Assembly (NCBI GenBank): GCA_934045905.1 | Contig: OW203761.1 | Coordinates: 36,594,321-36,658,320 of the forward strand | Direction of reading: 5' to 3' | Source of the DNA: Leuctra nigra | Lineage: Eukaryota > Arthropoda > Insecta > Plecoptera > Leuctridae | DNA: 64,000 nt | Shown here: positions 11,894-52,857 of the stretch, piece by piece | Numbering within the stretch: the first letter of the stretch is position 1 | Layout of the letters: every line of letters begins with the position of its first letter | The notes under the pieces: model-generated | The model's input: only the letters and a program-made list of their open reading frames with translations | What the model was told of the DNA's origin: nothing | Database searches by the model: none | Position numbers and translations under genes: made by a program

Positions 11894-13138
11894 ATGTCAT
11901 CTGCTTCAAGTTACTCTTCGCAAGATTCATCTCATCCCAAATCAGAAGCATCCTCATCGGACTCGTCTTCTGGCGAATCCACACAATCAGATGAATCAGA
12001 TGTCAACACTACGATTGCTGTAGACGTTGTTGTCACTAAATATAAGATGGCAGGTGATATTGTAAACCGCGTTTTACAGCAAATTCTAGAAAAGTGCATA
12101 GCCAATGCAAATGTTCGAGAATTATGCGAACTTGGCGACAGGCTAATCATTGAAGAAACTGACAAGGTGTACAGGAAGGTGAAAGCATTGAAGAAAGGAG
12201 TAGCTTCTCCAACATGTATATCGGTAAATAATTGTTGCTGTAACTACTCCCCAGTTACAGACACAGATAAGTTACGAAAGGGTGATGTTGTCAAAGTCGA
12301 TCTAGGGGCTCATGTGGACGGGTTTATTGCTGTTGCTGCTCACACTATTGTCGTTGGCGCTTCAAAAACATCGAAAGTGAAGGGAAGAAAAGCAGACGCA
12401 ATTTTAGCAGCACACTTTGCTTACGAGGCGTCTCTTCGTCTATTTGATGTCGGTAATGAATCTAATCAGATACCTTTGACAATTCAAAAAATGTGTGAGG
12501 TCTACAAATGCAAGCCAATTGAAGGAATGTCCTCACACAAAATGGGACAGTTTAAAATCCATGGAAAAAAGGAGATTATACAAAATCCTACCGAAGAACA
12601 AAAAGATGAGCTTGAAAAGTTTCAGTTTGGAGTAAACGAAGTGTTTGATTTTGGAGTGTTGGCTTCTTCTGGAGAGGGCACTTGTCGTGAGAACAGAGCT
12701 CGAGGCACAATCTTCATGAAGACTGATGTCAACTACCAACTGAAACGCAAATCATCTCGAGCTATTTACTCCGAAATAGTCAAGAATCATTCTCCATTGC
12801 TGTTTCACATTCGAGACTTCGAGGATCAAGGTAGGGCAAAGCTCGGCCTCATAGAATGTGTGAACCATAACGTAGTCACAGCTTTGGAAATACTCTACGA
12901 GAAAGCTACAGAGTTCGTCGCTCAATTCAGATGCACCGTTCTTCTGATGCCAAATGGTCCTCACAGAATCACTGGGCTACCATTTGATCTTGATCTCTAT
13001 GAATCTGAGTATACTTATCTCGATGATCCTCATCTGAGTGAATTGATGAGTCGGACCGGGAATCCGATGCGAGCGAGGAAGAAGAAGATACAGAAGATCC
13101 GCCGTCAGAGAGTGAAGGCTGCAGGAGAAGCCCCTTAG
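11894..13138 (+). CDS. PA2G4-like: PA2G4/EBP1-like protein, intronless copy
   Basis: A single 414-codon frame. After a Ser-rich, acidic N-terminal segment (residues 1-40) it reads VVTKYKMAGDIVNRVL, CELGDRLIIEETDKVY, SVNNCCCNYSP, KGDVVKVDLGAHVDGFIAVAAHT, GRKAD, IIQNPTEEQK and VAQFRCTVLLMPNGP. These are hallmarks of PA2G4 (EBP1), a catalytically inactive relative of methionine aminopeptidase 2 that binds ribosomes and RNA and affects growth. The C terminus is very basic (RARKKKIQKIRRQRVKAAG), as in the family. Family length is about 390 aa. It has no introns and many substitutions at family-conserved positions, so it looks like a diverged retrogene with an intact frame. An AATAAA lies at 13,247-13,252. 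The ATG has a good context (CAAAATGTC). Confidence 0.85.
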   Translation: MSSASSYSSQDSSHPKSEASSSDSSSGESTQSDESDVNTTIAVDVVVTKYKMAGDIVNRVLQQILEKCIANANVRELCELGDRLIIEETDKVYRKVKALKKGVASPTCISVNNCCCNYSPVTDTDKLRKGDVVKVDLGAHVDGFIAVAAHTIVVGASKTSKVKGRKADAILAAHFAYEASLRLFDVGNESNQIPLTIQKMCEVYKCKPIEGMSSHKMGQFKIHGKKEIIQNPTEEQKDELEKFQFGVNEVFDFGVLASSGEGTCRENRARGTIFMKTDVNYQLKRKSSRAIYSEIVKNHSPLLFHIRDFEDQGRAKLGLIECVNHNVVTALEILYEKATEFVAQFRCTVLLMPNGPHRITGLPFDLDLYESEYTYLDDPHLSELMSRTGNPMRARKKKIQKIRRQRVKAAGEAP

Positions 13139-14656: not shown

Positions 14657-17600
14657 CTGAAAAACATCACAAATGTGTATTTTAGTCAAATTGCCCAGCA
14701 TAGGGCACTAGCCAAACTATCTCCCGCTAGGGTGCTGCCATAGGTTTTGTGACAAGTGTGAAGTAAGCTGTTCGTGCCACTCAAAATTAAAACTCGCGAA
14801 ACTTTATTTTGACATGCGTAAGAAGATGAACTCACTGTTTAGATACATAGATTTTTTACTCTAGTATAATTAAATGTGTAAAAATAAGAAGATAGTGCAA
14901 TATCTAAAGCAAATTCTATTTCAATCTGAAGCGACACCCTCTCAATTGTTTTAATTGGAAGTTACAAAATTCCATTAAGCAGTGAGTCAGTTCAAGAGAG
15001 CACTGGAAACAAAAATAATTCTGTGAGCTGTCATTATATGATCAAAATATCATTATTACACTATCATTTCTAATAATTATCCACTATTTCGTTAAATAAC
15101 CAAATATCAACATTAATTATTATAATATAACATAAAAATACGGACTGTGGGGTAAGAAATGCGTTGATTTGAAAAGCACAGCCTCGACGCTAGCGCCAAA
15201 GTGGCCGATCCCGTCGTCCTAGCTTGGCATCGCCCCATTGCCAATCAAAATATACTTTGAGAGAAATACAACGAATTTTATGTTCGGTTGAGAACATTAT
15301 TTGAAATGTTTAAATAAATACCCTTTGAAAATTTATAACTTCTCTATTCGTCATTTGTTGATGTTAGGTGCTTCTGACTTAATATTTTGAGGTTCATTAA
15401 CAATTTGATCAAACAATAAATAGGTACTCAGTTTTGCCATGAAAATAGAACATCTGAAACGGTAAAGCACTGCAGTTCTGCCAACTAATGCAAAACTCTC
15501 CAAAACTGTCACATTTATTTCCAATTAAAGAAAACTGAAAACGAGCTGGTATCACTTACGTGCATTGCAAGCAGGGCCCAGACGCAGAATGAACTATATC
15601 ACCGACTTTGTATGCCTGGCCCTTGACCTGGCATCCCGACTTGTTCGCCTGTCCCTTGTAGGCGTGGGCGAAGAAGTGCGGCGGCAGCGGCGTCGTCGTT
15701 GTCGTCGTCGACGTCGTCACGTTCACCATGGTCGCCATGGAGACAGGACACTCGTATCGTGGACAACAGAAGCCAGTGATTGGCTCCTCGTGACAACGCT
15801 GGATGGGAGGCGGACAACTTTGTTGTAGACAGATGATGTCGCTACGGAAGCAGAAGCAGAAGTCGCAAGGATCGTCTCGCGGGATTTGTTGCGCGGAAAC
15901 GTAAACTTTGCCACCGTATCGACAGGTTCCCGGGCCGAAAGCTGCTTGCTGATCATCGTCGTAGTCCATGCTGCCACTTCCCGGGGGGAGGTAGGAACCG
16001 CCGCCAGGGAATGGCGACTCCTCGGGGAAGTGTTCCTCTTGCTCCTCGGGCATCTCCTCGTGGTCGGGCTCGGAGGGAATGGTGGTGTATTGGTGCGAGA
16101 AGTCACCACCGGTTGGATGTGTGAACGGGAACTGCGTCACGGGATGTTCGGGATGTTTGACAGGTTTGTGAGTGGCGGCGTGGGTTGTGACTTCAGGTTC
16201 CTCGTGAGCGGCAGTCGTTGCGTCCACAGCATGAGTGACCGCTGGCTTCTCTTCTGGTATACTCTTGAATGTCGTAGCTTCCGGTCTCTCCTCGGGTGAC
16301 GCTTCTTCGTGCTTGTCTTCCTCACTTGAGGAATCTTCATGGACTGGCGTTACCTCTTCATGGGCTGGCGTTACCTCTTCATGGATTGGAGCTACCGTTG
16401 GCTTTTCGTCATGTTCTGGAGCCTCTTCTGGTTTCTTGTCATGTACTGGAGCGTCAGTTGAAATTTCTTCGTGGACAGGAGCCTCAGTTGTAATATCTTC
16501 ATGAATTGGGGCGTCAGTTGCAATATCAGCAGGGGCTGGAGCGTCAGTTACAATATCAGCAGGGGCTGGAGCGTCAGTTACCTTTTCATCATGTTCTGGA
16601 GTCTCTTCTGGCTTTACGCCATGAACTGGAGCGTCTGTTGCAATATCAGCAGGGGCTGGAGCGTCAGTTACAATATCAGCAGGGGCTGGAGCGTCAGTTA
16701 CCTTTTCATCATGTTCTGGAGTCTCTTCTGGCTTTACGTCATAACCTGGAGCGTCTGTTGCAATATCAGCAGGGGCTGGAGCGTCAGTTACAATATCAGC
16801 AGTGGCTGGAGCGTCAGTTACCCTCTCATCATGTTCTGGAGTCTCTTCTGGCTTTACGTCATGAATTGGGGCGTCAGTTGCAATATCAGCAGGGGCTGGA
16901 GCGTCAGTTACAATATCAGCAGTGGCTGGAGCGTCATCATGTTCTGGAGTCTCTTCTGGCTTTACGTCATGAATTGGGGCGTCAGTTGCAATATCAGCAG
17001 GGGCTGGAGCGTCAGTTACAATATCAGCAGGGGCTGGGGCGTCAGTTACATTTTCATCATGTTCTGGAATCTCTTCTGGTTTTACGTCATGAATTGGGGC
17101 GTCAGTTACAATATCAGCAGGGGCTTGAGCGTCAGTTACAATATCAGCAGGTGCTGGAACGTCAGTTACATTTTCATCATGTTCTGGAGTATCTTCTGGT
17201 TTTTTGTCATGAACTGGGGCGTCAGTTGCAATATCAGCAGGGGCTGGAGCGTCAGTTACAATATCAGCAGTGACTGGAGCGTCAGTTACCTTTTCATCAT
17301 GTTCTGGCGTCTCTTCTGGCTTCACGTCATGAACTGGGGCGTCAGTTGCAATATCAGCAGGGGCAGGAGCGTCAGTTACATTTTCATCATGTTCTGGAGT
17401 ATCTTCTGGTTTTTTGTCATGAACTGGGGCGTCAGTTGCAATATCAGCAGGGGCTGGAGCGTCAGTTACAATATCAGCAGTGGCTGGAGCGTCAGTTACA
17501 GTTTCATCATTTTCTGGAGTCTCTTCTGGCTTTACGTCATGAACTGGGGCGTCAGTTGCAATATCAGCAGGGGCAGGAGCGTCAGTTACAATATCAGCAG

Positions 17601-20600
17601 TGGCTGGAGCGTCAGTTACCTTTTCATCATGTTCTGGAGTCTCTTCTGGCTTTACGTCATGAATTGAGGCGTCAGTTGCAATATCAGCAGGGGCTGGAGC
17701 GTCAGTTACAATAGCAGAAGGGGCTGGAGCGTCAGTTACCCTTTCATCATGTTCTGGAGTATCTTCTGGTTTTTTGTCATGAACTGGGGCGTCAGTTACA
17801 ATATCAGCAGGGGCTGGTGCGTCAGTTACCATATCAGCAGAGGCTGGAGCGTCAGTTACATTTTCATCATGTTCTGGAGTCTCTTCTGGCTTAACGTCAT
17901 GAACTGGGGCGTCAGTTGCAATATCAGCAGGGGCTGGAGCGTCAGTTACAATAGCAGCAGGGGCTGGAGCGTCAGTTACCCTTTCATCATGTTCTGGAGT
18001 ATCTTCTGGTTTTTTGTCATGAACTGGGGCGTCAGTTACAATATCAGCAGGGGATGGTGCGTCAGTTACAATATCAGCAGGGGCTGGAGCGTCAGTTACC
18101 CTTTCATCATGTTCTGGAGTATCTTCTGGTTTTTTGTCATGAACTGGGGCGTCAGTTACAATATCAGCAGGGGCTGGTGCGTCAGTTACAATATCAGCAG
18201 AGGCTGGAGCGTCAGTTACATTTTCATCATGTTCTGGAGTCTCTTCTGGCTTTACGTCATGAACTGGGGCGTCAGTTGCAATATCAGCAGGGGCTGGAGC
18301 GTCAGTTACAATATCAGCAGTGGCTGGAGCGTCAGTTACATTTTCATCATGTTCTGGAGTCTCTTCTGGTTTTACGTCATGAACTGGGGCGTCAGTTGCA
18401 ATATCAGTTGGGGCTGGAGCGTCAGTTACAATATCAGCAGTGACTGGCGCGTCAGTTACCCTTTCATTTTGTTCTGGAGTCTCTTCTGGCTTTACGTCAT
18501 GAACTGGGGCGTCAGTTGCAATATCAGCAGGTGCTGGTGCGTCAGTTACCTTTTCATCATGTTCTGGAGTCTCTTCTGGCTTTACGTCATGAACTGGGGC
18601 GTCAGTTGCAATATCAGCAGGGACTGGAGCGTCAGTTGCAATATCAGCAGGTGCTGGTGCGTCAGTTACCTTTTCATCATGTTCTGGAGTCTCTTCTGGC
18701 TTTACGTCATGAACTGGGGCGTCAGTTGCAATATCAGCAGTGGCTGGAGCGTCTGTTGCAATATCAGCAGGTGCTGGTGCGTTAGTTACCTTTTCATCAT
18801 GTTCTGGAGTATCTTCTGGTTTTTTGTGATGAGCTGGGGCGTCAGTTACAATATCAGCAGGGGCTGGAGCGTCAGTTACCTTTTCATCATGTTCTGGAGA
18901 CTCTTCTGGCTTTACGTCATGAACTGGGGCGTCAGTTGCAATATCAGCAGGGACTGGAGCGTCTGTTGCAATATCAGCAGGTGCTGGTGCGTCAGTTGAC
19001 TTTTCATCATTTTCTGGAGTCTCTTCTGGCTTTTTGTCATGTTCTGGGGCTTCCGTTGGTTTGTCATCGTGGACGTGAGCCTCATCAGGTTTATCTGTAT
19101 GAACAGGTTTCTCAGCTGGAATATCCTCGTGAGCTGTTGTGCTTTCATCAATTGGAGATTCGGGCTTCTCAGTAACTGGAGAATCTGCTTCAATCAGTTT
19201 ATCGTCATCGGCAGTTTCCGGCTGGTGTTCAGGATGTTCCGGACTTTCAGTCACTTTGCCTTCTTCTAGTGTCGTGTGATCTTCAACTTCCTCGTGTTTC
19301 TCGGGTTGATCGATTTGAATATCGGGATGCTCGTGACCGGAAGTATGAACTGGCTCTGGGATATTGATGCCTACTTTCTCATCAGGGACTTCTGGCTCGT
19401 CACCGTCCTCACTCTCGTGAGAATGAGAACCAGGTTTGTCTGTAGCTACATCCTCCGATTCGGATTGAATGCGATTCGGTAAATCGTCGTTACCCTCTGA
19501 ATCCTCAGCAGGCGCAGCAGTAACCTCTTCGTGAGTCTCCTCAACTGGTTTATGAGTGACAGGTAAGTCAGTGCTCTCTTCAGCTGGTTTAACAGCGGAG
19601 TGGTCTGGCTTGTCACCAGCAGACTCTGGATGTTTCACATCGTGCTCGAATAACATGTGTTGAGGCTTGTCGTCGTGGTGGGTTTCTTCGTGCACTGGTG
19701 TCTTTGTGTGTTCTTCGGTCGATGACAACTCCTCGGAAGATGTTGACGAGCTGTCTTCTGCTGACGACATGCTGGACGACTCGTTGGACTCTTCTGAGGA
19801 GGTCGTCGACGATGACGTCGCGTGTTCCTCAGTGTCGTCGTGAGCCGGGAGTTTCTCTGTGACTTCCATTTCCTTCTCAGTCGATGGATGAGTGACTTCC
19901 ATTCCCATTTGGCTGTCGGATTCCAGTTCAGGTTTATAGGTTTCATCTATAACGAAAGAAATACAATTTGTAAATAACTTTGAATGAAATAACATGTAGT
20001 TATTTCTAAAAAAGCGCATCCAACTGCGTACCCCTCCACTGGAGGACATAACAAATATAAAACAATATACAGTAGCAATTATGAAAAACTAAGAGAATAA
20101 ACTCAATCGATACAATAAGTTTACAGAAAAAGAACATCTTTAAAAAATCACTACAAACTGAATAATGCATAGGACACCAAATCTAATCTGGGGCTAAATC
20201 AAATTAGTTAAAAGTGGACCTAATGTGTTCAATAGATCTGTGAATTATATCTAAAGTGCTATCAATTTGGAATTTAAAATAATCGAAAGTATGCACAGGT
20301 AATTCTATTTACACAAAAATGTTTATATTATATATTTACCAAACAACAATATTATAATCTTTGTAAATGGTAGATGTAAATGGTTTACAAAATAAATGAA
20401 CTTCTAAATGAACTTACCGCATATGTAGGTCAAACAGCAGCCACCGTTGTGATGTGGTACTGGACTGCAACGCATGTGTGGAGGCGGTGGAGCACAATTG
20501 ACGGGCTCGCAGTGGACGATGCTGCTAAGACAACGACAGGACACCTTGCAAGGGCTGAGAGGTGGGATGGACGTGTTGTTCACGTAGGTGATCCCGTTAA

Positions 20601-23600
20601 CAAAACAACTGCCCTCGCCGGGAACGATCTCGTGGGTAGGAATGCCAGCCGGTCCCTGGAACGGCCGAAGAGTGGTGAAACCCTCCGCAGAACCGCCCAT
20701 GCCGTCAACGTGAGTGGAATGTTCCATATCAACGAATGGAGCTTTAGTGAGGTCCTCGGTGATGAACGGCGCTTGCGTAGAATCGTCAGAGGCCATTGGT
20801 TTGTTGCCAGCACCAGATATGATCGAGTGTATTAGACCGACAACATGATCGAACTCTGATTGGACGGATCCATTCGTTGTTTCATCATCAGTTGTTGGAA
20901 CGGGTTGCTTCTGTCCCTCGTCAGATTCTGGTTTATAGACAGGTGCTCCAGTCTGTTCCTCCTCTTCATGTTTATCATCAGATTCTGGCACATGGGTAGG
21001 TGCTATGGTATGTTCTTCCTCCTTATGTTCTTCTTCAGATCCTGGTTTATGGACGGGTGCTCCGGTATGCTCCTCCTCCTTATGTTCTTCGTCAGATTCT
21101 GGTTTATGGACGGGTGCTCCGGTATGCTCCTCCTCCTTATGTTCTTCGTCAGATTCTGGTTTATGGACGGGTGCTCCAGTATGCTCTTCCTCCTTATGTT
21201 CTTCGTCAGATTCTGGTTTATGGATGGGCGCTCCAGTATGCTCTTCCTCCTTATGTTCTTCGTCAGATTCTGGTTTATGGACGGGTGCTCCAGTATGCTC
21301 TTCCTCCTTATGTTCTTCGTCAGATTCTGGTTTATGGACGGGCGCTCCAGTATGCTCTTCCTCCTTTTGTTCTTCGTCAGATTCTGGTTTATGGACGGGT
21401 GCTCCGGTATGCTCCTCCTCCTTATGTTCTTCGTCAGATTCTGGTTTATGGACGGGCGCTCCAGTATGCTCTTCCTCCTTTTGTTCTTCGTCAGATTCTG
21501 GTTTATGGACGGGTGCTCCGGTATGCTCCTCCTCCTTATGTTCTTCGTCAGATTCTGGTTTATGGACGGGCGCTCCAGTATGCTCTTCCTCCTTATGTTC
21601 TTCGTCAGATTCTGGTTTATGGACGGGCGCTCCAGTATGCTCTTCCTCCTTATGTTCTTCGTCAGATTCTGGTTTATGGACGGGTGCTCCGGTATGCTCC
21701 TCCTCCTTATGTTCTTCGTCAGATTCTGGTTTATTAACGGGTGCTCCGGTATGCTCCTCCTCCTTGTGTTCTTCGTCAGATTCTGGTTTATTAACGGGTG
21801 CTCCGGTATGCTCCTCCTCCTTATATTCTTCGTCAGATTCTGGTTTATTAACGGGTGCTCCGGTATGCTCCTCCTCCTTGTGTTCTTCATCAGATTCTGG
21901 TTTATGGACGGGTGCTCCGGTATGCTCCTCCTTATGTTCTTCGTCAGATTCTGGTTTATGGACGGGTGCTCCAGTATGCTCCTCCTCCTTGTGTTCTTCG
22001 TCAGATTCTGGTTTATTAACGGGTGCTCCGGTATGCTCTTCCTCCTTATGTTCTTCGTCAGATTCAGGTTTATAAACAGGTGCTCCAGTATGCTCCTCCT
22101 CCTTGTGTTCTTCGTCAGATTCTGGTTTACGGACGGGTGCTCCGGTATGCTCCTCCTCCTTATGTTCTTCGTCAGATTCTGGTTTATTAACGGGTGCTCC
22201 GGTATGCTCCTCCTCCTTATGTGCTTCATCAGATTCTGGTTTATGGACGGGTGCTCCGGTATGCTCCTCCTCCTTATGTTCTTCGTCAGATTCTGGTTTA
22301 TGGACGGGTGCTCCGGTATGCTCCTCCTCCTTATGTTCTTCGTCAGATTCTGGTTTATTAACGGGTGCTCCGGTATGATCTTCCTCCTTATGTTCTTCGT
22401 CAGATTCTGGTTTATTAACGGGTGTTCCAGTATGCTCCTCCTCCTTATGTGCTTTATCAGATTCTGGTTTATGGACGGGTGCTCCGGTATGCTCCTCCTC
22501 CTTATGTTCTTCGTCAGATTCTGGTTTATTAACGGGTGCTCCGGTATGATCTTCCTCCTTATGTTCTTCGTCAGATTCTGGTTTATTAACGGGTGTTCCG
22601 GTATGCTCCTCCTCCTTATGTGCTTCATCAGATTCTGGTTTATGGACGGGTGCTCCGGTATGCTCTTCCTCCTTATGTTCTTCGTCAGATTCTGGTTTAT
22701 AGACAGGTGCTCCGGTATGATCTTCCTCCTTATGTTCTTCGTCAGATTCTGGTTTATTAACGGGTGCTCCGGTATGCTCTTCCTCCTTATGTTCTTCGTC
22801 GGATTCAGGTTTATAAACAGGTGCTCCAGTATGTTCCTCCTCTTTGTGTTGTTCATCAGATTCGGGCTTTTGAATTGGTGAATTGGTATGCTCCTCCATT
22901 ACCACTTTATGTTCTTCATCAGAATCTGGTTTATGGACGGGTGCTCCGGCATGCTCCTCCTCCTTATGTGCTTCATCAGATTCTGGTTTATGGACGGGTG
23001 CTCCGGTATGTTCTTCCTCCTTATGTTCTTCGTCAGTTTCTGGTTTATTTACGGGTGCTCCGGTATGCTCCTCCTCCTTATGTGCTTCATCAGATTCTGG
23101 TTCATGGACGGGTGCTCCGGTATGTTCTTCCTCCTTAACGGGTGCACCGGTATGTTCTTCCTCCTTATGTTCTTCGTCAGTTTCTGGTTTATGGACGGGT
23201 GCTCCGGTATGCTCCTCTTCCTTATGTGCTTCATCAGATTCTGGTTTCTGGACGGGTGCTCCGGTATGCTCTTCCTCCTTATGTTCTTCATCAGATTCTG
23301 GTTTATGGACGGGTGCTCCGGTATGTTCTTCCTCCTTATGTTCTTCGTCAGTTTCTGGTTTATGGACGGGTGCTCCGGTATGCTCCTCCTCCTTATGTTC
23401 TTCATCAGATTCTGGTTTATGGATGGGGGCTCCTGTATGACCTTCCTCTTTATGCTCTTCATCGGACACTTCTTCTGGTTTCGACGATATTTCGTTGTCA
23501 GTGACAGGCTCTTCAGAGCCATCAAACTGTCCTCGCACAGGCAAGATAGCTTCGGTCGTTAGCTCGATGGGTTCTTCAGTGGTTTCAGTTGGTTTCTTGT

Positions 23601-26600
23601 CGAAGGGAATGTTCGTTGGGAAGATTTGCTCGACAACGGCGTTCTCCTCATCGTCTTGATTAGCTGGTTTCTCCTCTGGTTTGTGAGCGTCTTCTGGCTT
23701 CTGCTCTGGTTTGTCCTGAGACGTCTGGTCGTGCTCTGGCTTCTCCTCGGGCTTCGAGTTAAGATCGACGGTCTTGTCCGCGAAGTCCTGCCCGTGCTCG
23801 AGATCTGATTCGTCGTCGTCGACATGGTTGGCCGCGGCGTTCTCGGTCGTTCCCTTGTCACCGTTCTCGTTGTCTACAGAAATCAACATACAGAGTTAGT
23901 TGTTTGACAATTATACCCATTTCATACTTAATCGAAAATCATGGATCGCAAGTCAGTATGCGTCTTTCAAACTCCATTATTTTTATCAACGTGTCTTGTT
24001 TATGTGTCAAATGCACGCTGGAATTATGTCTATCTTTGTTTTCTGTGTGTTATTTAAATTCCACAAATTATTTTGGTTAATGTATTTGACATAGCCCAGC
24101 TTTGGGTTCATTTAGTTTTAGTGAACTACTTGACAATCATATTTTGTCTTTTGAGTATGCTGTATAGAGAAGGTGGTTAGTCACTTTTTGAGTTTTTCAG
24201 TGTTTTATTATGGCATTTTTCTTTGAATTACGTCAGCATTGATTATGAAAAGCCATTTTGAACATACATTCTGAATATTAAATGTAACATTCTCTTCTAC
24301 CATTTATACAGTCAAAAAATTTAACGGCAGTGTTACGAGAATTTGTAATTGAACACATTTTATTGAATTTTAGAAAATCATATTCAGTGCTGGCAAAAAT
24401 TATTTGCAAAAATGCAACAATTTACACTTAAAACCCGTTTCAATGCACATGTAAAGCGTAATACAACTACAGGTATTCTCTACAGTAGTGGTTGTATTTG
24501 GAAAGCAGAACAAGCGGTACAAAAGCTAAGCCAAGACACATGCCCACATTGCCTGCCCTAAAGCTTGGTTTTCCGAATACAATCATACCGTCGGAATGAG
24601 TGTCATGTTTGCGATCAGCTCGTTCGCCCTCTTGTGGCTTGGCATCTGAAATGAGAAGAGTCTCTCTAAGCTACCATGCTGCAAGTGCAATGTGCTATCA
24701 AGTGTGCGGTGCGGTACGTGCGTGTGGTGCGTAGAGTGAGAGTTATGCAGTGCGTATATCAAGTTGACAGGTTTCAGAAGTAGTATTTATTGAACGAAGT
24801 ACTAGTTTGGAGCTCAGCGCCCATGAACTTCATAAAAGTTAATATAATATTGTTGATTATTTACTATATTTTTATACGTCAGATTTGTTTAAATTGATCA
24901 GTATATTAGTTAGACTAGCAATTGTTACGTAAAATTATTGCCCTGGTACATAAGTTTAATAAGCGTTACTATTACTAATTATAAATTAGAATGTTTCCTA
25001 TTCGGTGTTTAAGTTGAATTATTTATTATAATGAAATAGTTAGTGCCTCCAAAGTGTAGGAATTTATACGGATTTTAAAATAATTGATATTTTTCAACTG
25101 AAGAGAACAGGATCATAAACAATCGAAGAATCTTGAAGAGGAAATCTCACGATCTGAAAAATAAGTATCCCGAAATCCTTGACCAGCAGCACTTGAGTCA
25201 GTCCCGTTCTCTTCCAGATGCGTTGAATCTCGCGTCATAAGATGAGACCTTAAGACCAACTCACCACACTCGTACTGCTCTGGGCAGCACTGTCCGGCTT
25301 GCGGCTTGACCGCCGTGCAGTTCTTGCCCTCGTGCTCCAACGGCGTCCCACAGTCCTGCACGGCGCACACGATGTCGCCGCGCATGCAGTAGCAGTGCTC
25401 GCAGGGCTGAGGCGTCGCGATGCGCGCGCCGTCGCCGTACACCTCGTCGTTGAAGCGGCACTCCAGAGGGCCGGGCGTCGTGGTGGTCAGGACCAGTCCG
25501 GGAGTCGGGCGGACGGTTGTGTCCAGTTCGTACGAGCCCTGGTAGTCTGAGGGGCAACAACATACTCGTCAAAACACGGCAGAGGAAGCGCGTACTGTGA
25601 TTAGAACCGGTATAATTGTCCGAGAAATATAATCATAAAATATAACTATCCTTATTACAACATATACTCTTGTTATATGCGCATTAGATTTTATCAGCCT
25701 GATAAATGTTTTCGAGAGCCGGTTTAATACCAACTTTTGCAATTATCTAGTATATTATGGAAATGCAAGTTGGTTTGTGGTACTGCCGTGCCCAAGTCTC
25801 GGTAACTAATAAGTAGAAATGCTGCTATGCAAATGCTATTTATATCCAGGATATTGAATGCACCTACCACAATCGTATCTGACCGGACAGCAAACACCTG
25901 CCTCGTAGATGGGTCTGCAGCCCTCGACGTGGAGTGTGCACTCTTGCATCACACATGCAGTCATGTTGCGGATGCAGTAGCAGAGCTCGCACGGCTTCAT
26001 GGGGTTGCCGGGTACCTGTTGAACATCGACAACACATCACACATGCAGTCATGTTGCGGATGCAGTAGCAGAGCTCGCACGGCTTCATGGGGTTGCCGGG
26101 TACCTGTTGAACATCGACAACACATCACACATGCAGTCATGTTGCGGATGCAGTAGCAGAGCTCGCACGGCTTCATCGGGTTGCCGGGTACCTGTTGAAC
26201 ATCGACAACACATCACACATGCAGTCATGTTGCGGATGCAGTAGCAGAGCTCGCACGGCTTCATCGGGTTGCCGGGTACCTGTTGAACATCGACAACACA
26301 TCACACATGCAGTCATGTTGCGGATGCAGTAGCAGAGCTCGCACGGCTTCATCGGGTTGCCGGGTACCTGTTGAACATCGACAACACATCACACATGCAG
26401 TCATGTTGCGGATGCAGTAGCAGAGCTCGCACGGCTTCATCGGGTTGCCGGGTACCTGTTGAACATCGACAACACATCACACATGCAGTCATGTTGCGGA
26501 TGCAGTAGCAGAGCTCGCACGGCTTCATGGGGTTGCCGGGTACCTGTTGAACATCGACAACACATCACACATGCAGTCATGTTGCGGATGCAGTAGCAGA

Positions 26601-29600
26601 GCTCGCACGGCTTCATGGGGTTGCCGGGTACCTGTTGAACATCGACAACACATCACACATGCAGTCATGTTGCGGATGCAGTAGCAGAGCTCGCACGGCT
26701 TCATCGGGTTGCCGGGTACCTGTTGAACATCGACAACACATCACACATGCAGTCATGTTGCGGATGCAGTAGCAGAGCTCGCACGGCTTCATGGGGTTGC
26801 CGGGTACCTGTTGAACATCGACAACACATCACACATGCAGTAATGTTGCGGATGCAGTAGCAGAGCTCGCACGGCTTCATGGGGTTGCCGGGTACCTGTT
26901 GAACATCGACAACACATCACACATGCAGTCATGTTGCGGATGCAGTAGCAGAGCTCGCACGGCTTCATGGGGTTGCCGGGTACCTGTTGATCATCGACAA
27001 CATCACACAACTGTCCGGAGACGATTCGACAAGCGTCGGGATCATGTGTTTTCCTTTACGTTTGAATCAGGAAGTCTGAGGATAATAGTTCGGATTGTTT
27101 CTCAAGTTCGTAAGAAGACGTTGAAAGAAAAAGTAGGATTTCCCCTAAAGGTTTAGTAGTCGACAGATTTGCGGACGCCGCGAAGATGATTGTCCCGCGA
27201 GTGCGAATCTAACAGTTCAATCGAGCAAAGCAGAGCGGACGTGTCTTGTATACGGACACGGACGTGTCGACGTGACTTCCTACCTGAGCGCCGTCGGTGA
27301 AGAACGTGTCCTCGATCGTGCAGCCGTAGTTGTCGCGGTGTCCGACGGCCGTCGAGCCGGTGGGCGCCGGCGTCGTCGGTATCGTCGTCGAGCTCGTCAG
27401 GAGTTGCACCGGCACTGAAACATGCCACAGGTGTCAAATCTACCGACATGTTAATAAAAGACGTTCAAATACAAACATTACATGCGGTTATCTATTTTTT
27501 TTTAATTTTGATTTAATAGTTTCGTTTTGTTATTTGTAATATGCTACTCTTATTTCAACCATTTCCAATAATTGACAATTGTTGTGAATTTTAAATGTTA
27601 TAAATTCCCAATAATTAGTGATTTTATTATACTGGATAATTTCTTTTTTTAATAACTGATTGTATATCATTGTTTGGTGTATTAAAACTAAACGACACGA
27701 AACGAAATAGATTTAATACATCTAGGTGTTGCATGCACATAGAAATGTTTTAAAGAGATTGTAAAAAATCCAATTCCTGGTTCATTCAGGTCTGCTAATA
27801 ACTTCAGTCGTGACGAACAGTTTTGTTCGATTTTCGTCTACTGGTATATGATCAGCTCCTAAGAAATACAGAAAGAAGCATTTTCGTAAATTCCTTTTCC
27901 AACTCCTCTTACCTTCCGGGCAAGTGATGACTGGACAACATTGATCAGGTCGTTTCTCAATCTTGCAGTCTTGACCGATCGCTTTGGTGAACGGACAGAC
28001 CCTCAAGTAGCACATTAGCATACGATTATGACAGGTGCAATTGAGACACGGTTCATTTGTGACGATCCGATCGCCTTCGCCGTAATGTTGGAAGTTGTAA
28101 TAGCATCCTCCCACACCTGCAACACACATCAATCATCATTCACGAGATGCAAGAGTCAATGATCCTGTTTGCAGACTCCCAGGCATCCAGTCAAACACGT
28201 GAATCCATACAGTTTATTACACCAAACGTGTGCTCACCGGTTAAAATAATAAAACAATATAATGCAATAATTACTAATTAAATGTGATTACATGTGATGA
28301 TAATAAAATGGAATTGCACATAGAGGAATTTCGTTCAAACATAAACGAAAACAATTACTGTCGGTGGTTTTTATTTCACCTCTGGTTGTAAATGACAGCA
28401 TTCCATGAAGTATTGCAGTGTAAACGACCGAAGTTGAAACGGAAAGTAATCATAGCGTAACCTGTTAATCGCTGTTTTTTTTCTTAACAGAAAAAGGAAG
28501 AAGTAAGATTTTGGCTCTATAATTGTAAAAATTGGTTTGGTGAACATCGCCATCGTAATTGCTCGATAATAACAGTTGATCCAAGGTCGGGAGTAGCAAA
28601 AAACCAGAGTCAATCTCAGGGATAATAAAGAGTTCATATCATCTTTAAGATGCAAAATAGTAAGTTCTGCCGCTATTTAAAGCCAGGTGGATAGAATTCA
28701 AAAGACCATCGACTCCTCCCCTCCGACAGTGATCACCAAAACCACAATTCAAACCCTCTGGCTTCGAAAACTGACTTCGCAACTCCTGAATAATACCCGT
28801 ATCTGATGTCCAGAGACGAAAAATTTGAATATAAATCTATTCCTTCTCGCGATAAGCCCGAAGAAAAGAAGACCCGAAGAAGACCTCGACCTGAAGAATC
28901 GCCAGCGGCCTAGAAGACAGCAGGTCTCCACTAAGATACGTCGAAACCAATCGATTTCGACGAAATATGATTTCACAAGTGTTGTAATTAGATGTCTATT
29001 ATTGCCGTGATATGAGTGAAGTTGTTGTGTGTTGAACTTGAGGTCAATGGACCATCTTGGAGGCCTGCAGACGGCTTCCCTACATCCTGTGCTAGAGCGA
29101 TGGCGTCCATGGTGTGAACACCACGTTGAGGCCAATACTCTCGGCACAACGGGCGTGGGAAATCGGAGAAGAAATAGCGACAAAAACGCATTACATCGAA
29201 ATAATAACTAGATTGAGATGGAGGTTTTCTATGATCAGAAGCAATAGTTGCACCACGTTCGAGCGATCGATCTTGTCTTGGTGTTCAGGAAGGAGTTGTG
29301 AAGAGGAGGCGAGGCAACCTTGGCCTCCTAGAGTGCGAATTACCAGATATAAGTGGAAGGAGAGTTTCTCAACAATTTACTTCTTTTACAGATTACCGAA
29401 AGGCCCGTTGAATTCACAAGTACGTGGTTTTATGAAAGGTGTTAAACATTTTTCCGACATGTGTACCGAAAAATCGAAAGTTCCCATCATCATGCATAAA
29501 AAAATAAAAGTAAAGCAGCATTTTAATTTTATACAAATTCATATACCTAGACTCAAGAATATTAAAAATACACTTTTGCTATTGTAGTATGAGAAGCACG

Positions 29601-52079: not shown

Positions 52080-52850
52080 AATGTTGTGAAGATTCCAGGA
52101 GGAATGTAAGATCATGGCACCTCCACCACATGGCACCTCCACAGTTGCATCGGCAAGTAATTGTGAAATGTTGTGAAGATTCCAGCAGGAATGTAAGATC
52201 ATGGCACCTCCACCGTTGCATCGGCAAGAGTTTGTGAAATGAAGTGAAGATTCCAGCAGGAATGTAAGATCATGGCACCTCCACCACTTGGCACCTCCAC
52301 CACACGGCACCTCCACCGTTGCATCGGCAAGTAATTGTGAAATGTTATGAAGATTCCAAAGGAATGAGTGATCATGGCACCTCCACCACTTGGCACCTCC
52401 ACCACATGGCACCTCCACAGTTGCATCGGCAAGTAATTGTGAAATGTTGTGAAGATTCCAGCAGGAATGTAAGATCATGGCACTTCCACCGCACGGCACC
52501 TCCACCGTTGCATCGGCAAGTAATTGTGAAATGTAGTGAAGATTCCAAAGGAATGAGTGATCATGGCACCTCCACCACACGGCACCTCCACCGTTACATC
52601 GGCAAGTAATTGTGAAATGTAGTGAAGATTCCAGCAGGAATGAGTGATCATGGCACCTCCACCACACGGCACCTCCACCGTTGCATCGGCAAGTAATTGT
52701 GAAATGTAGATTCCAACAGGAATGAGTGATCATGGCACCTCCACCACTTGGCACCTCCACCACACGGCACCTCCACCGTTGCATCGGCAAGTAATTGTGA
52801 AATGTAGTGAAGATTCCAACAGGAATGAGTGATCATGGCACCTCCACTAC
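52080..52850. repeat. Nested minisatellite, eight copies of an ~70-105-bp unit with 16-17-bp subunits
   Basis: The phrase GTTGCATCGGCAAG recurs near 52,144, 52,215, 52,318, 52,423, 52,508, 52,593, 52,678 and 52,777. Between copies lie one to three short GGCACCTCCACCAC subunits and an AAGATTCCA(R)(C)AGGAATG block. Spacing varies with the number of subunits. Long open frames over it arise from the repeat. Confidence 0.9.
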
Positions 52851-52857
52851 ACGTGGA

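What the first reader, a model, noticed from the sequence alone, without database searches (positions are those of the whole stretch)
25868..27010. Twelve tandem 3' splice sites made by an 88-bp duplication spanning an intron-exon border
Each 88-bp unit holds an acceptor (TCAACAG|GTACCC) plus the first 69 nt of exon 5 of the tenectin-like gene. Only the innermost acceptor gives a complete VWC2. The outermost gives a frameshift and a stop in the third unit. This gene therefore has to ignore eleven decoy acceptors, or use them to make truncated or NMD-targeted transcripts. A 12-step acceptor ladder of this kind is, as far as I know, unusual.
Basis: partly seen in the sequence, partly recalled or inferred. 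Interest (0 to 1): 0.9.

Follow-up and report, generated by a model that had tools for sequence, protein, structure and literature searches.

The report
Twelve-step splice-site ladder in tenectin-like gene
In what looks like an arthropod matrix-protein gene, an 88-letter piece covering the end of an intron and the start of an exon stands in twelve tandem copies, so RNA splicing has twelve almost identical places to land and only the last one makes the normal protein.

Summary
Twelve CAACAG|GTACCC acceptors lie exactly 88 bp apart on the minus strand (first exon bases 26983 to 26015). Units differ by at most two bases. The unit was found at one place in a 536-Mb assembly. Only acceptor 12 keeps the frame open; 1-10 stop in the third unit and 11 at the exon 5/6 junction. 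The protein made by acceptor 12 is contiguous in 56 of 59 relatives crossing the junction.

The array fits a tandem duplication between two copies of a 9-nt sequence, TGTGTGATG, one in the intron and one in the exon, followed by expansion.

Units could be removed as 88-nt introns, and a mis-splice could be repaired. The array acceptors, and by one of two measures the unit donor, are weak. I favour exon definition from the strong exon-5 donor selecting acceptor 12, with errors degraded. No RNA could be examined.

The kind is known (human UBC AGGT array; potato border duplication; a minisatellite of donor sites). A 12-copy, frame-breaking acceptor array is a new variant in what I could search.

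The parts
27284..27414 (-). Exon 4 (131 nt): first part of the second VWC-like domain; donor CAG|GTAGGA at 27283
   Evidence: Exon borders and open frame; donor score 8.05
26984..27283 (-). Unique part of intron 4 (300 nt), upstream of the array
   Evidence: Coordinates; length
27001..27009 (-). Intron copy of the 9-nt direct repeat TGTGTGATG at which the duplication could have started
   Evidence..CGGACAGT TGTGTGATG TTGTCGATGATCAACAG..
26016..26983 (-). Eleven complete 88-bp units (1-11), each GTACCC...TTCAACAG: 69 nt of exon-5 copy plus 19 nt of intron 3' end with an acceptor; intronic if acceptor 12 is used
25868..26015 (-). True exon 5 (148 nt) after acceptor 12; its first 69 nt match the repeated exon part; donor GTG|GTAGGT at 25867
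   Evidence: Open frame only for acceptor 12; contiguous in 56 of 59 relatives; donor score 8.93
25947..25955 (-). Exon copy of the 9-nt direct repeat TGTGTGATG
   Evidence..CTGCA TGTGTGATG CAAGAG..
25265..25546 (-). Exon 6, with the third VWC-like domain
   Evidence: the one Pfam VWC match over cut-off in the joined exons (PF00093, residues 191-250) lies here
27913..28116 (-). Exon 3, with the first VWC-like domain
   Evidence: VWC match at E 0.0001, under the curated cut-off

Best explanation
This is a minisatellite made by repeated tandem duplication of an 88-bp piece spanning the 3' end of intron 4 and the first 69 nt of exon 5 of a tenectin-like gene. The first duplication probably used a 9-nt direct repeat (TGTGTGATG) shared by intron and exon; slippage or unequal exchange then expanded it. 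Mechanism, inferred: the innermost copy keeps everything the exon needs (acceptor, intact exon, strong donor), so recognition of exon 5 across its 148 nt pairs the strong exon-5 donor with acceptor 12, and the eleven upstream units leave with the intron. The other acceptors are weak but equal, so some RNAs should land on them. Those RNAs carry early stop codons and are degraded, or are rescued because the junction CAG|GTACCC and the GT...AG ends of every unit allow a second splice to acceptor 12. Shown: anatomy, single locus in the assembly, 9-nt repeat, frames, weak acceptors, conserved product. Inferred: order of events, exon definition, NMD, re-splicing.
For: Anatomy and spacing; 9-nt repeat at the junction with two extra bases. 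Only acceptor 12 of 12 gives an open frame. In 56 of 59 relatives crossing the junction the product is contiguous as acceptor 12 makes it, and 35 of 59 have Val at the first exon-5 codon. One relative, P0090, carries what looks like a retained intron at the same Q|V point, whose frame implies a single intron of about 86 nt with acceptor AG|GTACC (inferred from protein). Acceptors 2-12 score the same (0.49), so choice must come from outside the scored 23 nt; the exon-5 donor is strong (8.93). Every unit is GT...AG, and an intron of 81 nt was read in a P450 gene of the same genome, so 88 nt is long enough. Exon definition itself is general knowledge, from no call.
Against: No RNA evidence at all. 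Intron-first recognition could favour early acceptors, because exon 4 to acceptor 1 is only 300 nt. The array acceptors score below 23 of 24 reference acceptors, so even acceptor 12 is weak and the gene may splice inefficiently. The unit donor scores below all 27 reference donors by matrix although 6 of 27 pair more weakly with U1, so re-splicing may be rare. A nearby AG (first exon base 27010) scores higher than the array acceptors (1.42).
Confidence: 0.68

Rival explanations
1. Serial dual-specific splicing: the units are removed mainly one or a few at a time, each CAG|GTACCC acting first as acceptor and then as donor (recursive route), as in the AGGT array of human UBC.
For: Every unit is GT...AG and every border is CAGGTACCC. 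The six best U1 genes of this genome start ATACTTACCTG, which pairs with six contiguous bases of the unit donor; 6 of 27 reference donors pair more weakly. UBC and other human tandem-repeat introns are spliced at AGGT sites.
Against: Donor matrix score 1.8 is below all 27 reference donors. Only 9 of 17 bases upstream of acceptors 2 and 12 are pyrimidines. AG|GT acceptors are common in the reference set (12 of 24) without any array.
Confidence: 0.17
2. Poison ladder: decoy use is substantial and useful, so the array lowers or tunes output of the gene by making NMD targets, with copy number as a dial.
For: All 11 decoys give premature stops; acceptors 2-11 score the same as acceptor 12.
Against: No sign of selection was tested or seen; units are nearly identical (mean 0.73 differences in 88 nt among 11 units), so the array may simply be recent or homogenised. 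A protein search with the decoy reading found 4 of 4 hits matching only the true exon part, so no relative with the array was seen.
Confidence: 0.1
3. Assembly artefact: copy number inflated or collapsed.
For: Read data and sequencing technology were not available.
Against: Chromosome-scale contigs (C1 68.1 Mb), no N in the window, internal variants in a non-periodic order, a single locus, and an array of 1.06 kb, short for a long read.
Confidence: 0.05

Closest known systems
Human UBC polyubiquitin array of AGGT dual-specific splice sites (PMC10809524)
   Same: Head-to-tail repeats with an AGGT at every unit border, so a unit can be removed as an intron; [quoted passage not shown]
   Different: UBC units are coding and 228 nt apart (frame kept). 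Here units are 88 nt (frame broken), mostly lie in an intron, and must all be removed for the normal protein. Dual use is not shown here.
Intron gain by tandem duplication across an intron-exon border, potato RdRp (PMC4974935)
   Same: The duplicated piece holds the intron 3' end and the exon 5' part, so an upstream exon copy plus a downstream intron copy can be a new intron
   Different: One duplication, a GTAAG donor inside the exon copy, and RNA-seq support; here twelve copies, a GTACCC donor exactly at the border, no RNA data
[quoted passage not shown] title seen only in reference lists)
   Same: A minisatellite that multiplies a splice site
   Different: Donor sites there, acceptor sites here
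Drosophila ratchet points / recursive splicing (PMC8605326)
   Same: Acceptor directly followed by a donor sequence
   Different: Fly ratchet points sit mostly in long introns; here the intron is 1.27 kb, the acceptors are weak and the donor is weak to intermediate

Membership tests
Tandem array of dual-specific (AGGT) splice sites | AGGT at each unit border of a tandem repeat | tested here: met
   12 of 12 borders read CAACAG|GTACCC
Tandem array of dual-specific (AGGT) splice sites | Possible introns have lengths that are multiples of the unit | tested here: met
   All 11 spacings are 88; an 81-nt intron in L085 shows that this size can be spliced (by homology)
Tandem array of dual-specific (AGGT) splice sites | The same site is used both as donor and as acceptor in RNA | not testable with these tools
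   No RNA data held; the two measures of donor strength disagree
[quoted passage not shown]
   Unit = 69 nt of exon 5 plus 19 nt of intron end; 9-nt repeat at the junction
[quoted passage not shown]
   P0090 appears to have a single intron of about 86 nt at the same point; P0216-P0219 read through with no intron there; no close relative is held
[quoted passage not shown]
   No RNA data
Drosophila-type ratchet point | Long intron | tested here: not met
   Intron 4 is 1268 nt with the array and 300 nt without
Drosophila-type ratchet point | Strong acceptor and strong regenerated donor | tested here: not met
   Acceptors 2-12 score 0.49 (below 23 of 24 references) and the donor 1.8 (below 27 of 27); U1 pairing of the donor is intermediate (6 of 27 weaker)
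Minisatellite | Tandem units of 15-100 bp | tested here: met
   88 bp, 12.1 copies; size range from the start of the abstract of PMC3618361 (listing)
Tenectin-like protein with VWC domains | VWC domains | tested here: met
   PF00093 over cut-off once, in exon 6. Under cut-off in the first domain (E 0.0001) and weak in the second (VWC2L_2nd E 0.0033, VWC E 0.13). 95 relatives, best E 3.9e-106
Tenectin-like protein with VWC domains | Orthology to a protein called tenectin | not tested

The most novel reading that the evidence does not exclude
The array is a natural splicing ratchet: each unit is at once a decoy acceptor, a 'poison' exon start and a self-removing 88-nt intron. The normal mRNA is reached by any path that ends at acceptor 12, while copy number sets the fraction of transcripts lost on the way, a length-variable dial on the output of a matrix-protein gene. 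If copy number varies among individuals, it would be a ready-made test of acceptor choice with position as almost the only variable.
Probability: 0.12. Interest if true: 0.78.

Novelty: new variant of a known kind. Interest (0 to 1): 0.52.

Why it matters
How the spliceosome chooses among equal 3' splice sites is, as far as I know, studied mostly with engineered constructs. Here nature offers eleven acceptors (2-12) with the same scored sequence, differing mainly in distance from the donor and from the true exon, and each choice gives an RNA that differs by 88 nt. Which band dominates would show whether exon definition, first-come choice or re-splicing decides. It also catches a border-spanning duplication at high copy number, a state in which new short introns could form.

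Tried and rejected
Rejected: chance repeat; a repeat family dispersed in the genome (the unit query matched only this array); a translated repeat (of 12 acceptor choices only the one with no retained unit stays open). The AG with first exon base 27010 scores better than the array acceptors (1.42 against 0.49 and -2.15) and would add 27 nt in frame before acceptor 1 (frame seen), but the array still follows it and the 56 contiguous relatives do not carry those residues, so I set it aside. U1 pairing and the matrix disagree on the unit donor, so I left its strength open; the pairing energy was -7.6, -7.2 or -7.1 kcal/mol depending on the flank given. RNA folding of one unit and of the acceptor-12 region gave nothing I could interpret. 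Branch-point candidates were weak for acceptors 2 and 12 (3 of 7 matches to a recalled consensus); not pursued. Species identification failed: the protein search with the M24 ORF gave mixed animal groups, mostly insects (best 120 of 2149 listed), and the COX1 search of the own genome did not complete. The sugar-transporter search gave 9 long single-exon matches, of no use for splice sites. No paper on a tandem acceptor array was seen in the listings of searches, which cover open-licence PMC papers only.

Limits of the splice-site models: 40 P450 stretches were fetched; 37 were inspected, two more (L085, L086), and L084 was not looked at. I kept 23 donors and 21 acceptors by eye; the rest were near-duplicates or had unclear borders. 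Four donors and three acceptors of this gene were added. The sites come from a few homologous positions, so they are not independent. My note says 13 of 24 reference acceptors are AG|GT; a recount of the list gives 12. One search timed out and was redone in another form.
Full report
WHAT IS THERE. On the minus strand between exon 4 and exon 6 of a gene with VWC-like domains, the 3' end of an intron and the first 69 nt of the next exon are repeated. Tandem Repeats Finder gives period 88, 12.1 copies and 99% matches. A direct scan gives 12 acceptors CAACAG|GTACCC, all 11 spacings exactly 88, first exon bases 26983 (outermost) to 26015 (innermost). Variation is minimal: position 15 differs in units 4, 7, 8, 9 and 10, and position 54 in unit 2. 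The mean difference among the 11 complete units is 0.73 of 88 nt and the largest is 2. The unit query gave 12 matches in the own assembly of 536 Mb in 144 contigs, all within this array.

GENE AND READING FRAME. Exon 3 is 27913-28116, exon 4 is 27284-27414, exon 5 ends at 25868 and exon 6 is 25265-25546. With acceptor 12, exon 5 has 148 nt and the frame is open through exon 6. With acceptors 1-10 a stop comes 192 nt after the junction, in the third unit; with acceptor 11 the stop spans the exon 5/6 junction. The outcome depends on how many units stay in the RNA: zero is good, and each number from 1 to 11 is truncated. In 59 of them the alignment crosses the exon 4/5 junction. By a strict rule (no gap from 6 residues before to 22 after the first exon-5 residue, and the PC[ED]xCYC motif kept) 56 of 59 are contiguous; P0029 runs off after the junction, P0056 differs upstream of it, and P0090 carries an extra stretch. 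Val stands at the first exon-5 codon in 35 of 59, Leu in 15, Ile in 8, Met in 1. Pfam supports VWC over its cut-off only in exon 6. The domain that exons 4 and 5 make matches VWC2L_2nd at E 0.0033 and VWC at E 0.13, both under the cut-offs.

ORIGIN. The sequence TGTGTGATG ends the 69-nt exon part and also stands in the intron just before the first unit. At each unit-unit junction the exon side runs through TGTGTGATG into the intron side with two extra bases, TG. This is what a tandem duplication between two 9-nt direct repeats would leave, followed by expansion of the 88-bp unit; the order of events is inferred. Acceptor 1 has GATGATCAACAG and acceptors 2-12 have GATGTTCAACAG, so that change probably arose early in the array. 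P0090, from a metagenome contig, reads into what looks like an intron at the same Q|V point. Its peptide can read VPG..RKPCELCYCIRN in the +2 frame, and the compatible DNA found by the script begins AGGTACC, which places an intron of 86 nt (28 codons plus AG) with acceptor AG|GTACC there (inferred from protein, no DNA seen). P0216-P0219 read straight through the same point with no intron. So the intron appears present in some relatives and absent in others, and the array was seen only here. The decoy reading used as a query found four proteins, all matching only 34% of the query, the true exon part.

Exon 5 starts with GT, so each unit is GTACCC...TTCAACAG, a GT-AG unit of 88 nt, and each border is an AGGT. 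After splicing to any acceptor, exon 4 (..CTCAG) joined to GTACCC makes CAG|GTACCC again. A later splice from there to acceptor 12 would remove the remaining units and give the normal mRNA. An intron inferred by homology in a P450 gene of this genome is 81 nt long (L085), so 88 nt is not too short.

HOW STRONG ARE THE SITES. The six best U1 genes of this genome begin ATACTTACCTG (11 U1-like matches, 7 over cut-off; of the other five, one carries this word). By duplex energy the unit donor pairs at -7.1 kcal/mol against a median of -8.3 for 27 donors; 6 of 27 are weaker. By a small position matrix from the same 27 donors it scores 1.8, below all 27 (lowest 3.0, leave-one-out). Acceptors 2-12 score 0.49 and acceptor 1 scores -2.15; in each case only 1 of 24 reference acceptors is lower. 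Twelve of the 24 reference acceptors are also AG|GT (recounted from the list), so an AG|GT border alone is ordinary in this genome. The donors of exon 4 and exon 5 are good (8.05 and 8.93; both were in the training set). Against my reading, the AG at 27010 and several AGs inside exon 5 score higher than the array acceptors (up to 3.95), so the matrix alone would not pick the true acceptor. The matrices rest on few, partly homologous sites chosen by eye.

MOST LIKELY MECHANISM. Acceptors 2-12 have the same scored sequence (acceptor 3 has one changed base further upstream), so the choice must come from position and context. The true exon 5 is the only copy followed by an intact exon and a strong donor, 148 nt away. 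I therefore favour exon definition of exon 5 with acceptor 12, the eleven upstream units leaving with the intron, and decay of RNAs that land on decoys. Re-splicing is a backup whose share I cannot measure. Nothing here shows regulation.

RELATION TO KNOWN SYSTEMS. The human UBC gene has a tandem array of AGGT sites used as donor or acceptor, with a ladder of RT-PCR products; 77 human introns in tandem repeats have lengths that are multiples of the unit, 45 of them with the multiple-of-three property (PMC10809524; abstract, passages and sections 8 and 9 read). In potato RdRp one duplication across an intron-exon border made a new intron from the upstream exon copy plus the downstream intron copy (PMC4974935; abstract and results section read). 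A minisatellite with multiple splice donor sites is known (Turri 1995; title seen in reference lists only). Recursive splicing in flies uses acceptor|donor pairs, mostly in long introns (PMC8605326; abstract and introduction read). This case shares the logic of the first two. It differs in copy number (12 acceptors), in the frame-breaking unit, and in lying at the 3' end of an existing intron. Searches showed no tandem acceptor array in their listings; papers outside the open-licence library were not searched.

LIMITS. No RNA, no reads and no close relative were available; the species and order are not identified. Copy number rests on the assembly, which has chromosome-scale contigs (C1 68.1 Mb, C2 57.0 Mb, C3 45.7 Mb) but is of unknown read type.

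Noticed in passing
window 20918-23460 and 16334-19058 (minus strand ORFs 20404-23889 and 15556-20049): Two further large tandem arrays (57-bp and 30/120-bp periods) lie in long open frames downstream on the same strand, perhaps the repeat domain of the same protein; no Pfam match in either frame.
   Followed up: partly
window 52129-52853: A further minisatellite (periods of about 71-173 bp) whose minus strand carries GGTGGAGGTGCCATG-like blocks; its 276-aa frame gave only dubious Pfam matches.
   Followed up: partly
window 11894-13138, plus strand: An uninterrupted 414-aa frame with a Peptidase_M24 domain, about 57% identical to several insect proteins named proliferation-associated protein 2G4; perhaps a retrocopy, parent gene not looked for.
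   Followed up: partly
window 27010 (minus strand): An AG 27 nt upstream of acceptor 1 scores better than the array acceptors (1.42 against 0.49) and would add nine codons in frame before acceptor 1.
   Followed up: partly
relatives P0216-P0219 against P0090 (and possibly P0029, P0056): The intron between exons 4 and 5 is absent in some relatives and apparently present at the same codon in others, so the host intron itself has been gained or lost.
   Followed up: partly
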